64,000 bases of DNA from Clostridiales bacterium (lineage in GTDB: Bacteria; Bacillota; Clostridia; Saccharofermentanales; Saccharofermentanaceae), in contig JAFZKB010000029.1 of assembly GCA_017551865.1 (NCBI GenBank), positions 1 through 64,000 of the forward strand, written 5' to 3'. The translations under genes and the position numbers were made by a program. The notes beneath the pieces were generated by a model that saw only the letters and a list, made by a program, of their open reading frames with translations, had not been told where the DNA came from and made no database searches. Below are positions 53,030 to 63,223 of the stretch, in pieces (within the stretch, counting starts at the first letter, position 1; each line of letters opens with the position of its first letter).

Positions 53030-53965
53030 ATGAGTGAGATTAAACAAAGTGCATTAGAATTGATCGGAAATACGCCGCTTCTTCAGCTGAATGCGTATTC
53101 CAAGAAAAGAGAGATCACAGAGGCGACTGTGCTCGGTAAGCTGGAGTATCTGAATCCGGCAGGATCCGTGAAGGACAGAATCGCACAGGCCATGATCGAA
53201 GACGCAGAGAATAAGGGCCTTCTGAAGCCGGGTGCGACGATCATCGAACCGACTTCCGGTAACACAGGTATCGGACTTGCAGCAGTTGCAGCAGCGAAGG
53301 GCTACAAAGCGATCCTTACTCTCCCGGATACGATGAGCGTGGAAAGAAGAAATCTTCTTAAGGCTTACGGCGCCGAGCTCGTACTTACAGAGGGTGCCAA
53401 GGGCATGAAGGGTGCGATCGCAAAGGCGGAAGAGCTGAATAAGGAGATCGAAGGCTCGATCATCTTAGGCCAGTTCGTGAACCCGGCAAACCCGAAGATA
53501 CATAAGGAAACAACAGGACCGGAGATCTGGAAGCAGACCGATGGTAAGGTAGATATTTTCGTAGCTGGTGTAGGTACCGGCGGAACGATCACAGGTGTAG
53601 GCGAATACCTCAAGGAGCAGAATCCGAACGTGAAGGTCGTCGCTGTAGAACCGGCCACAAGTGCAGTACTTTCTACCGGTGTTCCGGGTGCACATAAGAT
53701 CCAGGGCATCGGCGCAGGATTCGTTCCGGATGTACTGAATACGAAGGTTTACGATGAGATCATCCCGATCGCTAACGAAGATGCTTTTGCAGAAGGAAAA
53801 GCATTCGCCGTTTCCGAAGGTATCCTCGTCGGTATTTCTTCCGGTGCAGCTCTTAAGGCTGCAGAGATCCTTGCAAAGAGACCGGAGAATAAGGGTAAAG
53901 TGATCGTTGCACTTCTTCCTGATTCCGGTGACCGTTATCTCTCTACTCCGCTGTTCAATTCCTGA
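53030..53965 (+). CDS. cysK: Cysteine synthase (O-acetylserine sulfhydrylase)
   Basis: A 311-residue CysK converting O-acetylserine and sulfide to cysteine. PLP-binding Lys-48 is in NPAGSVKDRIA, the substrate loop TSGNTG is at 75-80, the phosphate-binding GTGGT follows VAGVGTGG, and ILVGISSGAALKAA is near the C-terminus. It is the first structural gene after the cysteine attenuator (RBS TAGGAGGA), so its level should rise on cysteine shortage. It probably captures sulfide released by the nitrogenase-like enzyme encoded in the same operon. Confidence 0.96.
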   Translation: MSEIKQSALELIGNTPLLQLNAYSKKREITEATVLGKLEYLNPAGSVKDRIAQAMIEDAENKGLLKPGATIIEPTSGNTGIGLAAVAAAKGYKAILTLPDTMSVERRNLLKAYGAELVLTEGAKGMKGAIAKAEELNKEIEGSIILGQFVNPANPKIHKETTGPEIWKQTDGKVDIFVAGVGTGGTITGVGEYLKEQNPNVKVVAVEPATSAVLSTGVPGAHKIQGIGAGFVPDVLNTKVYDEIIPIANEDAFAEGKAFAVSEGILVGISSGAALKAAEILAKRPENKGKVIVALLPDSGDRYLSTPLFNS

Positions 53966-53982
53966 TACAGCAGGAGCTGAAG

Positions 53983-54855
53983 ATGAGTAATACATACGAG
54001 GAACTTCAGCACTCCCCTCCGTGCTTCGGCGGTCATAAGAACAATGCCGGAAGGATCCATCTTCCGGTAAGCCCGGGATGCAATATCGCATGCCGGTTCT
54101 GTGACCGGACCATCAACGATGTCGAGCAGCGGCCGGGAGTGACATCCAAAGTACTGAAACCTGAAGAAACGGAAGAGATCCTGAAAAAAGCACTGGAGAT
54201 CTGTCCGGAGATCAAAGTGGCCGGTATCGCCGGCCCCGGAGATACACTGGCTTCCGATTATGCGCTTGAGACTTTCAAAATCGTGAAAGAGAAATTCCCA
54301 CAGCTGATCAAGTGCATGAGTACTAACGGCCTTCTTCTGAATGAAAGAGCAGAAGATGTGATCCGTGTCGGAGTCGATTCTCTTACGGTGACCGTCAATG
54401 CGGTCGATCCTGAGATAGAGAGTAAGCTGAACGCCTACATTATCTATCACGGGAAAAAGATCGAAGGGGTGGAAGCAGCGAAGATCCTGATTGAGAACCA
54501 GCTGGCCGGTATTCGTAAAGTAGCAGCCGCGGGGATCACCATAAAGGTCAACACCGTGCTGGTACCGAGTATCAACGGAGATCATATCGAAGAGATCGCT
54601 AAGACGGTAAAAGAAGCCGGAGCGAAGATCTACAATATCATCCCCCTGATCCCGCAGCATGAGCTCCGTGATGAACCGGCACCGACCTGTGCGCAGATCG
54701 ATGCGGCAAGGACAAGAGCATCCAAGTATATCGATGTTTTCCGTCACTGCCAGCACTGTCGTGCAGATGCGGTCGGAGTACCGGGAAAGAGCGAATACGG
54801 TGACCGGATCTACCAGAAAAGGCTCGGAATAAAGGAGACATTCTCTCATGGATAA
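53983..54855 (+). CDS. nifB: NifB-like radical SAM protein
   Basis: A 290-residue NifB core without the C-terminal NifX domain. The radical SAM cluster cysteines are 33, 37 and 40 in CNIACRFC, after the NifB-type GRIHLPVSPG. The additional NifB cluster ligands are also present: Cys-14 in PPCFGG, and Cys-256 and Cys-259 in FRHCQHCRADAVG. NifB makes the carbide-containing 8Fe core (NifB-co/L-cluster) from two [4Fe-4S] clusters. Its presence implies that this system builds a nitrogenase-type cofactor rather than only [4Fe-4S] clusters, unlike the chlorophyll or F430 relatives. It overlaps the NifX-like gene by 8 nt. Confidence 0.92.
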   Translation: MSNTYEELQHSPPCFGGHKNNAGRIHLPVSPGCNIACRFCDRTINDVEQRPGVTSKVLKPEETEEILKKALEICPEIKVAGIAGPGDTLASDYALETFKIVKEKFPQLIKCMSTNGLLLNERAEDVIRVGVDSLTVTVNAVDPEIESKLNAYIIYHGKKIEGVEAAKILIENQLAGIRKVAAAGITIKVNTVLVPSINGDHIEEIAKTVKEAGAKIYNIIPLIPQHELRDEPAPTCAQIDAARTRASKYIDVFRHCQHCRADAVGVPGKSEYGDRIYQKRLGIKETFSHG

Positions 54856-61930: not shown

Positions 61931-61933
61931 CAT

Positions 61934-63223
61934 ATGTCGAATGTAACAGAATTTCCCAAAGGCGGATGTGTTCTGGCCGGTATCAATTCGGTCTTAAGTG
62001 CGATCGATCGAGTATGCCCGATCTTTCATTCCGGCCCAGGCTGCTGCATGCAGACGACGGCATCCGATGCAGGCCAGTCCGGTCATAAGTCTTCGTGCTT
62101 TGTCAGCGCCGTTTCCATCCCTTCCAGCAATATGCTTGAAAAAGAGGTCGTTTTCGGCGGAACGAATAAGCTTCGTACGACCATCCAGGGAGCCGTCGAT
62201 ATCATCGATGCCGATGCATATTTCGTACTGACCGGCTGCACCGCCGGCATCATCGGAGACGATATCGCCAGCGTGACCAATGAATTCTTTGAAAAAGGAA
62301 TTCCGGTCTATCCGATCGAGACGCCCGGCTTTACCGGCGACAGCAATCTCGGATATGAAACGGTATGGAATACCTTCCTGGATAAGGTGATCGAGAAGGA
62401 TGTCCCGAAGGATGATAAACTCGTCAATATCTTCGGCATCATCCCGTATCACGATCCGTTCTGGAGCGGAACGCTCGAAGAGATCGACCGTATCCTTTCC
62501 CGGCTGGGTCTTAAGGTCAACACCTTTTTCACCAAGGGACAGGGGATCGAGACGATCAGAAAATCTTCCGGCGCCGCACTGAACATCATCGTGAATCCGT
62601 GGCTTTTTAAGGGCCCGGCTGCTAAATATGAAAGCAAATTCGGTGTACCGAGTCTTCGTATTCCGGGGCTTTTCGTTGGGGCTACGGATACGACGAAGTT
62701 CGTCCGCAAGGTAGCCGAAGCGCTTCACCTCGATAAGGATCTGGTGGAAAAAGTTATCGCAGATGAAGAAAAATATGTATATAGCTACCTGGGACAGGCC
62801 ATCGGTGTCCTGAGCTGGAAGCGTTTCGCAGTAGTTGCGGATGCGAATAATGCGGTAGGATTCACGAGGTATCTTGCCAATGACTATAGTTTTACTCCAG
62901 TGCTGGTCATCATTTCCGAACCGATCTTCCGTCCGGAAGATAAGGAAACGATCATCAAAGAGATCGAAGATCTCGAGTATGCAAGACCGCCGAAGGTGCT
63001 TTTCCTGTCGGATCAGTATGAGATCAATCAGGCGATCCGGGAGGAGGAAGAGGAGATCACGCTTCTTGTGGGAAGCAGCAATGACAGGGAGGTCGCGCTG
63101 GAAAAGGATATCCAGTTCATCCTCGGAGCTTTCCCGATGAGCGAGAGATTGATCTTCAATCGTACTTATGCCGGTTATCGTGGCAGTCTGACATTTACGG
63201 AAGACATCTACGACAACAACTGA
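61934..63223 (+). CDS. Nitrogenase-like component 1 beta subunit, pair 2
   Basis: A 429-residue NifK-like protein starting 3 nt after the alpha gene. P-cluster-type cysteines are Cys-12 (GGCVLAG), Cys-37 or Cys-38 (SGPGCC) and Cys-102 (LTGCTAGIIGDD). VVFGGTNKL is at about 72-80, and the C-terminus (YAGYRGSLTFTEDIYD) is as in K-type proteins and in pair 1 (YAGYAGGIRLIEDIYT). Together with the preceding alpha subunit it would form the heterotetramer that accepts electrons from NifH. A terminator follows. Confidence 0.94.
   Translation: MSNVTEFPKGGCVLAGINSVLSAIDRVCPIFHSGPGCCMQTTASDAGQSGHKSSCFVSAVSIPSSNMLEKEVVFGGTNKLRTTIQGAVDIIDADAYFVLTGCTAGIIGDDIASVTNEFFEKGIPVYPIETPGFTGDSNLGYETVWNTFLDKVIEKDVPKDDKLVNIFGIIPYHDPFWSGTLEEIDRILSRLGLKVNTFFTKGQGIETIRKSSGAALNIIVNPWLFKGPAAKYESKFGVPSLRIPGLFVGATDTTKFVRKVAEALHLDKDLVEKVIADEEKYVYSYLGQAIGVLSWKRFAVVADANNAVGFTRYLANDYSFTPVLVIISEPIFRPEDKETIIKEIEDLEYARPPKVLFLSDQYEINQAIREEEEEITLLVGSSNDREVALEKDIQFILGAFPMSERLIFNRTYAGYRGSLTFTEDIYDNN

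What the first reader, a model, noticed from the sequence alone, without database searches (positions are those of the whole stretch)
53030..63223. Nitrogenase-like system embedded in a cysteine-biosynthesis operon
One operon encodes cysteine synthase, NifB, NifH, two NifX-like proteins, a second CysK-like enzyme and two component-1 alpha/beta pairs. The sequence directly shows the cluster ligands of NifB, NifH and all four component-1 subunits. No NifV, modABC or ammonia-related genes are visible in the window. The neighbours are transsulfuration, serine acetyltransferase and a sulfonate-type importer, under sulfur-type control. Methylthio-alkane reductase of Rhodospirillum rubrum is an established precedent for a nitrogenase-like enzyme releasing sulfur from thioethers. 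My inference is reductive C-S cleavage feeding CysK here. The two-pair layout with an embedded CysK paralogue is not one I recognise as characterised.
Basis: partly seen in the sequence, partly recalled or inferred. Interest (0 to 1): 0.95.

Follow-up and report, generated by a model that had tools for sequence, protein, structure and literature searches.

The report
Gut sulfur-scavenging nitrogenase look-alike operon

Summary
At 53030-63223 lie cysK, a short NifB, NifX, NifH, a second CysK-like gene, D1-K1, NifX and D2-K2. All four component-1 subunits match methylthio-alkane reductase (MAR) best among solved structures. D1 keeps MAR's P-cluster and cofactor ligands, including the loop-I Arg-His pair, in the 80 nearest relatives fetched. 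D1 forms a sister clade to the clade holding MarD, outside NifD/NifE. The order cysK-nifB-nifX-nifH-[CysK-like]-D1-K1-nifX recurs across gut Bacillota and partly in Spirochaetota and Bacteroidota. D2-K2 is optional: it lacks MAR's loop I, but a conserved His424 aligns with nitrogenase's cofactor His. The Fe protein is NifH-type, not MarH. Lachnospira multipara and Lachnospiraceae 3-1, whose NifH matches human-gut 'nifH', have one NifH over cut-off and only D1-K1. Reductive C-S cleavage feeding CysK is the best explanation; substrate and product are unknown. Against it: the related NfaDK group is credited with 15N2 fixation in Endomicrobium, and some faecal NifD homologues reportedly keep the nitrogenase His. 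A nitrogenase-like/cysteine-synthase link was printed in 2012, 'pseudo-nifH' in 2021. New variant of a known kind.

The parts
53030..53965 (+). CysK1, O-acetylserine sulfhydrylase
   Evidence: TIGR01139 447.5 bits over cut-off; over 80% identical CysK1 upstream in 48 of 62 loci with enough sequence
53983..54855 (+). NifB, radical-SAM cofactor synthase lacking the C-terminal NifX domain
   Evidence: best PDB match NifB 7bi7 292 bits; eight Cys invariant in 68 rows
54848..55204 (+). NifX1, detached NifX-like domain
   Evidence: matches C-terminal part of TIGR01290 and PF02579
55220..56068 (+). NifH, Fe protein of canonical type
   Evidence: TIGR01287 465.1 bits; best PDB match nitrogenase iron protein 1cp2 479.9 bits against 290.5 for the MAR Fe protein 9fmg_D
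56105..57121 (+). CysK2, second CysK-like PLP enzyme in the nifH-D1 slot
   Evidence: cysKM 272.1 bits, below cut-off; a CysK-like gene in this slot in 70 of 77 loci with enough sequence
57140..58606 (+). D1, MAR-type catalytic alpha subunit
   Evidence: MarD 299.5 bits against NifD 123; ligands; trees
58606..59904 (+). K1, MAR-type beta subunit
   Evidence: MarK 390.5 bits against NifK 88; three P-cluster Cys in 77 of 77 rows
59984..60457 (+). NifX2, NifX-like protein with a Gly/Cys-rich insert
   Evidence: PF02579 59.2 bits; present in 65 of 74 loci with enough sequence
60473..61930 (+). D2, optional second alpha subunit without MAR loop I
   Evidence: MarD 227.8 bits; no Arg428/His429 equivalent; His424 and Cys180 in 24 of 24 rows
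61934..63223 (+). K2, beta subunit of the optional pair
   Evidence: MarK 242 bits; three P-cluster Cys in 25 of 25 rows
47626..48711 (+). SsuA/NMT1-type substrate-binding protein
   Evidence: TIGR01728 81 bits, below cut-off; PF09084 over cut-off
48735..49697 (+). SaoP/TauC/NtrB-type permease
   Evidence: all models below cut-off; PF00528
49691..50476 (+). ABC ATPase, Sao/nitrate/taurine/sulfonate type
   Evidence: best models below cut-off; the importer trio stands in 21 of 80 loci
45680..46591 (+). serine O-acetyltransferase
   Evidence: TIGR01172 164.6 bits, below cut-off; EpsC-type NF041874 151.9, over its cut-off of 150
43300..44451 (+). MetB/MetC-like transsulfuration enzyme (named by recalled similarity)
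   Evidence: homologues in 31 of 80 loci
44480..45664 (+). MalY/PatB-like C-S lyase (named by recalled similarity; start codon uncertain)
   Evidence: homologues in 33 of 80 loci

Best explanation
This operon encodes a nitrogenase-family enzyme that keeps the metal-cluster ligands of methylthio-alkane reductase, and it likely splits a carbon-sulfur bond in a scavenged organosulfur compound so that the freed sulfur or thiol would be built into cysteine by the CysK enzymes beside it. Shown: gene content, ligands, phylogeny, conserved order and neighbours. Inferred, in order: (1) the sulfonate-type ABC importer brings in a small organosulfur compound; (2) NifB, with NifX1 and NifX2 as carriers, makes and delivers an Fe8S9C cluster; (3) NifH with ATP passes electrons through the D1-K1 P-cluster to a cluster held by Cys257 and His414; (4) the C-S bond is cleaved reductively; (5) sulfide or a thiol is captured by CysK1 or the slot enzyme CysK2. 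D2-K2 would be a second reductase for a different substrate that shares NifH and NifB, with its cluster held by Cys260 and probably His424.
For: All four component-1 subunits match MAR best among solved structures. D1 keeps Arg428/His429, Trp195, Phe199, His375, Cys270 and all P-cluster Cys of MarD, each in 80 of 80 relatives, the best 80 of 240 loci. D1 clade plus MarD clade 100/100; D1 clade 99/96; NifD/NifE outside. Conserved order. A CysK-like gene fills the nifH-D1 slot in 70 of 77 loci, by two types only about 43% alike, and is found downstream instead in L040, L055 and L067. Importer trio near D1 in 21 of 80 loci, and near other MAR-like or D2-like pairs, including a 71% MarD in L128. 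Only 2 PF00148 genes in 8 of 22 carriers, so no NifEN or second pair there. No PF01077 sulfite/nitrite reductase in 20 of 22. No NifV over cut-off in 22 (see caveat).
Against: No phenotype, substrate or product is known. D1 lies outside the MarD subclade and lacks MarD's Cys73 and His194 (Gly59, Ile179). 20 of 22 carriers lack MtnA, so they seem to lack a step of the methylthioadenosine route to methylthioethanol (route recalled). NfaDK, a close group with, by my placement, the same Arg-His pair, is credited with 15N2 fixation in E. proavitum (PMC4995403, PMC9147875). PMC4995403 says that other Clostridiales of the same NifH clade, and some faecal NifD homologues, keep the nitrogenase His. Sulfite reductase is uncommon in the class anyway: 36 of 148 have it. 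NifV: none of 14 control genomes passed the cut-off either. The importer scores below family cut-offs and may serve another solute. CysK adjacency could simply be a general cysteine operon. One row of the D1 clade (L095) has Arg-Ala, not Arg-His.
Confidence: 0.67

Rival explanations
1. An unconventional nitrogenase: D1-K1 (or D2-K2) reduces N2 with an Fe-only cluster, like the NfaDK group of Endomicrobium.
For: NifH is canonical and passes TIGR01287. The clade that I take for NfaDK (Paenibacillus, heliobacteria) shares the Arg-His pair, and E. proavitum with NfaDK incorporates 15N2 (PMC9147875 passages, PMC4995403 discussion). PMC4995403 reports 15N2 incorporation by human faecal microbiota and that some clade members keep the NifD His. 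D2 His424 aligns with the NifD cofactor His.
Against: Gln191 and His195 of NifD are Trp/Phe (D1) or Cys/Phe (D2). 8 of 22 carriers have no component-1 gene beyond D1-K1; the extra pairs of the others were not all classified. Setting is sulfur metabolism. Purified MAR cannot reduce 15N2 (PMC12552129). Klebsiella nifH was found in the same faecal surveys (PMC4995403).
Confidence: 0.13
2. A methylthio-alkane reductase in the strict sense: dimethyl sulfide or methylthioethanol to methanethiol plus hydrocarbon.
For: Shared ligands. MarD relatives of 71-81% identity exist in Bacillota, some with similar neighbours. A Bacteroidales genome has a 54% MarD beside the same kind of NifH/NifB.
Against: D1 is a sister clade, not inside the MarD subclade; Cys73 and His194 differ; MtnA absent in 20 of 22; the genes inside the operon are CysK-like rather than MetY; one genome carries both a MarD-like and a D1, which suggests different substrates.
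Confidence: 0.2
3. Isethionate-reductase-like sulfonate cleavage that releases sulfite (Isr).
For: Sulfonate-type importer nearby; Isr is a nitrogenase-like enzyme reported in intestinal bacteria (PMC11423573, abstract).
Against: IsrD keeps only one P-cluster Cys and no cofactor Cys, and IsrB is not NifB-like outside the radical-SAM motif (PMC11423573, sections 13 and 17); D1 has all of them; 20 of 22 carriers lack PF01077 to use sulfite.
Confidence: 0.05
4. D2-K2 is a NifEN-like scaffold that matures the D1-K1 cofactor.
For: Paired layout like nifDKEN, an idea raised for linked pairs in PMC3464626 (section 11); no MAR loop-I His.
Against: D1-K1 occurs without any other component-1 gene in 8 of 22 genomes; K2 keeps all three P-cluster Cys, unlike NifN (recalled); D2-K2 also stands away from D1-K1, e.g. 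before a CysK2 in L186. Whether MAR itself is helped by a host NifEN I did not see.
Confidence: 0.1

Closest known systems
Methylthio-alkane reductase MarBHDK of Rhodospirillum rubrum (PDB 9fmg, 9d9u; PMC12552129)
   Same: P-cluster Cys, Cys270, Arg428-His429, Trp195, Phe199, His375 in D1; NifB-type partner; sulfur-metabolism setting
   Different: D1 is a sister clade with Gly for Cys73 and Ile for His194; NifH is NifH-type rather than MarH; NifB is split; CysK1 and a slot CysK-like gene lie in the operon; optional second pair D2-K2
NfaDK / heliobacterial NflDK1 and NflDK3 (PMC9147875, passages read)
   Same: Same superclade and, in the rows I take for them, the Arg-His pair.
   Different: No function known for NflDK3; NfaDK is a separate group credited with N2 fixation in E. 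proavitum
Group IV 'NifE-like/NifN-like' proteins near cysteine synthase or OAH sulfhydrylase (PMC3464626)
   Same: Cys275 equivalent present, His442 absent, cysteine synthase nearby
   Different: The loop-I His was not known then; the gut operon, the slot CysK and the NifH pairing are not described in the parts I read
MarHDK-like genes near type I mlp gene clusters (PMC10418091, passages read)
   Same: Group IV MarHDK-like genes with sulfur genes, CysK among them in a figure legend
   Different: Defined by corrinoid methyltransferase clusters, which I did not see among the flank families listed
Isethionate reductase IsrBHDK (PMC11423573)
   Same: Nitrogenase-like C-S cleavage with a sulfonate importer
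   Different: Lacks most cluster ligands that D1 has; unrelated radical-SAM partner

Membership tests
Methylthio-alkane reductase (MAR) | Six P-cluster Cys plus cofactor Cys270 | tested here: met
   D1/K1; also D2/K2
Methylthio-alkane reductase (MAR) | Loop-I Arg428-His429 hallmark | tested here: met
   D1 Arg413-His414 in 80 of 80 rows; not met by D2
Methylthio-alkane reductase (MAR) | Phylogenetic place inside the MarD subclade | tested here: not met
   D1 clade (99/96) is sister to the MarD-containing clade (99/99)
Methylthio-alkane reductase (MAR) | MarH-type Fe protein | tested here: not met
   1cp2 479.9 bits, 9fmg_D 290.5 bits
Methylthio-alkane reductase (MAR) | Reduces methylthio-alkanes to methanethiol | not testable with these tools
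   needs enzyme assay
Mo-, V- or Fe-nitrogenase | Gln191, His195 and His442 of NifD | tested here: not met
   D1 has Trp, Phe and no loop-II His; D2 has Cys and Phe, and only His424 aligns with His442
Mo-, V- or Fe-nitrogenase | NifEN and NifV in the genome | tested here: inconclusive
   8 of 22 genomes have no PF00148 gene beyond D1-K1, the rest were not all classified; no NifV over cut-off in 22, but none in 14 controls either
NfaDK group (IV-A) | Place in the Nfa clade | tested here: inconclusive
   rows that I take for Nfa (L092, L123, L094, L166) sit in the MarD-containing clade, not with D1; named Nfa sequences were not in hand
Isethionate reductase (Isr) | Loss of two P-cluster Cys and of the cofactor Cys | tested here: not met
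   all present in D1 and D2; Isr features read in PMC11423573 section 13

The most novel reading that the evidence does not exclude
The 'Cluster III nifH' that surveys count as Clostridiales diazotrophs in the human gut and rumen belongs largely to a further MAR-family C-S reductase, driven by a canonical NifH, that turns scavenged organosulfur into cysteine; the same NifH also serves an optional sister enzyme (D2-K2) that anchors its cluster by a nitrogenase-style loop-II His, so one cofactor pathway feeds two active-site designs in one operon.
Probability: 0.43. Interest if true: 0.88.

Novelty: new variant of a known kind. Interest (0 to 1): 0.75.

Why it matters
If right, a common gut and rumen gene set that has been read as nitrogen-fixing potential is a sulfur-assimilation enzyme. 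PMC4995403 reports human-gut nifH sequences 98% identical to L. multipara NifH and over 97% identical to that of Lachnospiraceae 3-1, reports Cluster III sequences in 10.7-31.7% of individuals by country, and names Clostridiales as candidate nitrogen fixers; PMC6776011 counts nitrogenase in 23% of 501 rumen genomes. In the two named strains the only NifH over cut-off sits beside D1-K1, and D1-K1 is the only component-1 pair. The histidine that those authors found missing from L. multipara NifD has a MAR-type counterpart in loop I. It would also add a route by which gut microbes release sulfide or thiols, and give a likely Fe8S9C enzyme in cultured gut anaerobes.

Tried and rejected
Rfam over 40000-64000: no hit, so no riboswitch evidence for sulfur control. 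Sulfite reductase absence as a specific signature: not kept, because PF01077 is uncommon in the class anyway (36 of 148, against 2 of 22 carriers; no significance test run). An Sao-type (selenocysteine-assisted organometallic) reading of the importer: only below-cut-off similarity, not pursued. A D1-against-sulfite-reductase contingency within the class: only 4 of 148 genomes have a D1 match at E 1e-60, the own genome included, too few. Structure prediction was not run, because no coordinates would be returned to measure ligand geometry. A K-subunit tree and a NifH tree were not built. Homologue lists show only the best 120, so named Nfa sequences were not obtained.

Rows dropped before trees: of 80 D1 loci 14 were chosen, and only ORFs of 400-640 aa kept, giving 94 D rows; these were cut to 67 and then to a hand-chosen 43, mostly near-duplicates and long branches. 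Among those left out of the 43 are L095, L120 (MarD_39), L085 (D1_48), L130, L133, L149, L132 and L121 at 12673. L095, in the D1 clade, has Arg-Ala instead of Arg-His.
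Full report
WHAT IS THERE. Ten same-strand genes run from 53030 to 63223: CysK1, NifB, NifX1, NifH, CysK2, D1, K1, NifX2, D2, K2. NifB lacks its NifX-like tail, which is the separate gene NifX1. Upstream lie a sulfonate/taurine/nitrate-type ABC importer (47626-50476), a DUF4418/FtsX/ATPase set (50507-52744), a LysR gene, serine acetyltransferase and MetB- and MalY-like genes. 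The importer parts score below the NCBIfam cut-offs of their best models, so 'sulfonate-type' is a subfamily label, not a proven substrate.

WHAT THE CATALYTIC SUBUNITS ARE. Against all PDB sequences, D1, K1, D2 and K2 each match the methylthio-alkane reductase (MAR) chains best: D1 299.5 bits against 123 for the best NifD, K1 390.5 against 88, D2 227.8 against 116, K2 242 against 107 for NifE. The MAR structure paper (PMC12552129; abstract, introduction, sections 6, 8, 9, 12 and passages read) gives P-cluster Cys66/91/158 in MarD and Cys32/56/121 in MarK, an Fe8S9C cluster held by Cys270 and His429, and an Arg428-His429 pair in loop I as a possible hallmark. D1 keeps all of these, plus Trp195, Phe199 and His375; it differs at Cys73 (Gly59) and His194 (Ile179). 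In 80 further D1 sequences Cys52, Cys77, Cys143, Trp180, Phe184, Cys257, His362, Arg413 and His414 are invariant. D2 keeps the P-cluster Cys and Cys260 but has the loop-I segment deleted, Cys at the Trp195 place, and Leu or Thr at the His375 place depending on the alignment. Profile alignment puts D2 His424 on the NifD loop-II His (that this is the cofactor His442 is recalled and fits the flanks described in PMC3464626). His424 and Cys180 are present in 24 of 24 D2 rows. That His424 is a ligand is an inference.

PHYLOGENY. A 43-row tree (ultrafast bootstrap/SH-aLRT) gives D1 clade 99/96, MarD-containing clade 99/99, the two together 100/100, D2 as its own lineage 100/100, and NifD/NifE outside. 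A 67-row quick tree has the same main groups. The MarD-containing clade also holds rows (L092, L123, L094, L166) whose relatives include Paenibacillus and heliobacteria and which I take for the NfaDK group. The pair at G050:C7:126974 in the D1 clade is probably H. fasciatum NflDK3, whose role PMC9147875 calls unknown.

DISTRIBUTION AND ORDER. A D1 scan of genome contigs found 240 loci and kept the best 80, from Lachnospiraceae, other Clostridia, Treponema and Bacteroidales at 85-100% identity. Among loci with enough flanking sequence: K1 76 of 76, CysK-like slot gene 70 of 77, NifH 67 of 73, NifX1 61 of 70, NifB 60 of 67, CysK1 48 of 62, NifX2 65 of 74, D2 16 of 57. The NifH misses are the four Bacteroidales loci with enough sequence (L076, L077, L079, L083) and two Treponema loci (L086, L087); where the whole genome was searched (L076, L086, L087) a NifH lies farther off on the same contig. 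In a phylum sample of 398 genomes only the own genome, G367 and G050 have a match of at least 46% identity, and 4 of 148 class genomes have one at E 1e-60, so the set is patchy. High identity across phyla, with an isolate (Treponema sp. JC4) among them, suggests horizontal spread; this was not tested formally.

NEIGHBOURS. Flanking families in the 80 loci: MalY-like 33, MetB-like 31, NifS 20, serine acetyltransferase 9, importer trio 21; LysR in 30. Loci end at most 10 kb upstream of D1, so these are lower bounds. The importer trio also stands near MAR-like or D2-like pairs in L123, L126, L128, L134 and L138 and within some kilobases of D2-K2 in L183, L188 and L190. A Treponema saccharophilum plasmid has an ABC importer between two D/K pairs. 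In L196 one run reads SBP-permease-ATPase-K-D-NifB-NifX-NifH-D1-K1-CysK, though its NifH is only 49% identical to the window's. The slot CysK-like gene comes in two types only about 43% identical, which suggests that its activity matters to the pathway (inference).

WHOLE-GENOME CONTEXT. In 22 carrier genomes (own genome plus 21 that I chose from the 80 loci): each has exactly one NifH over the TIGR01287 cut-off, within 2.5 kb of D1 in 19 of 22; eight have only two PF00148 genes, i.e. D1-K1 alone, including L. multipara (G402), Lachnobacterium bovis (G405) and Lachnospiraceae 3-1 (G406). The other 14 have 4 to 9 PF00148 matches, not all classified. D2 orthologues of at least 69% identity are in 12 of 22, in four of them in the D1 operon. 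PF01077 is absent in 20 of 22; MtnA is absent in 20 of 22; NifV is over cut-off in 0 of 22, but also in 0 of 14 control genomes.

THE Fe PROTEIN AND THE GUT nifH QUESTION. The operon's NifH matches a nitrogenase iron protein (1cp2, recalled as C. pasteurianum; 479.9 bits) far better than MarH (290.5 bits), and is 89-100% identical in 68 loci. PMC4995403 (discussion and passages read) reports human-gut nifH 98% identical to L. multipara NifH and over 97% to Lachnospiraceae 3-1 NifH, and concludes that Clostridiales are candidate fixers although L. multipara NifD lacks the His ligand. PMC4356463 (section 16 and passages read) found the same odd mix in Prevotella bryantii: conventional NifH with NifE/N-like proteins lacking His442. 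Both fit if the partner is a MAR-type enzyme with its His in loop I. Against this, PMC4995403 also states that other Clostridiales of that clade keep the His, and that faecal NifD homologues with and without it were found; whether those are D2-like or true NifD I could not check. PMC6776011 (passages read) counts nitrogenase in 23% of 501 rumen genomes and finds low nifH expression. I did not obtain the amplicon sequences.

MECHANISM. The best reading is reductive C-S cleavage at an Fe8S9C cluster driven by NifH, with the released sulfide or thiol captured by CysK. Shown: ligands, phylogeny, order and neighbours. Inferred: cluster type, substrate uptake, reaction and product. With no PF01077 member in most carriers examined, a sulfite product (as for Isr) would be hard to use; sulfide or a thiol is more likely. 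MtnA absence argues against an own methylthioadenosine-derived supply and for a scavenged substrate.

AGAINST. NfaDK is credited with 15N2 incorporation in E. proavitum (PMC9147875, PMC4995403), and the rows that I take for Nfa share the Arg-His pair. Residue motifs alone therefore do not exclude N2 reduction. There are no expression or growth data. CysK adjacency may reflect a general cysteine operon.

PRIOR ART. PMC3464626 (2012; section 11 and passages read) already noted nitrogenase-like proteins near cysteine synthase or O-acetylhomoserine sulfhydrylase, or ABC transporters, and suggested sulfur metabolism. PMC10418091 (passages) reports MarHDK-like genes with sulfur genes near methyltransferase clusters. 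PMC8597730 (passages) showed that many nifH sequences of Clostridia and of gut metagenomes lack nifDK partners ('pseudo-nifH'); whether this operon was counted there as true or pseudo I did not see. Literature searches, whose listings are capped, did not show a description of this gut operon or of a MAR-type partner for the gut Cluster III nifH; the library lacks most subscription papers, and North et al. 2020 (Science) was not read.

Noticed in passing
L007 3943-10413 (own genome, contig 19): A second nitrogenase-superfamily set: NifH-like protein and two PF00148 proteins between a permease, an ATPase and a binding protein of B12/iron-siderophore type (types named by recalled similarity), without an obvious NifB in the ORFs listed. 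Weaker PF00148 matches of the same kind are seen in G399, G408, G409 and G410.
   Followed up: no
L191 and L076 (Bacteroidales genome G415): One NifH over cut-off lies on a contig that carries both a MarDK-like pair (54/49% to R. rubrum) and a D1-K1 pair, so one Fe protein would serve both.
   Followed up: partly
L124 (G050), L097/L131 (G029), L128 (G174): MarD relatives of 71-81% identity in Bacillota; L131 has one with a NifH 81% identical to the window's, and L128 and L131 have CysK-like neighbours.
   Followed up: partly
L118 (Treponema saccharophilum plasmid pTS2): The system is plasmid-borne, with two D/K pairs, an ABC importer between them and a type I-C CRISPR cassette a few kb away.
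   Followed up: no
59984-60457: NifX2 carries a Gly/Cys-rich insert in the middle of the NifX domain; whether it binds metal is unknown.
   Followed up: no
61928-61934: D2 ends in TGA and K2 starts in the same frame three bases after it; the genome search reports a joint open frame of 921 aa here and 920-976 aa in some relatives.
   Followed up: no
37384-38679 (-): Serpin-like ORF with a lipoprotein-type start (named by recalled similarity).
   Followed up: no
L187, L192, L193: Further MAR-like or unclassified D/K pairs with LysR genes nearby, and with ABC importer parts in L187 and L192.
   Followed up: no
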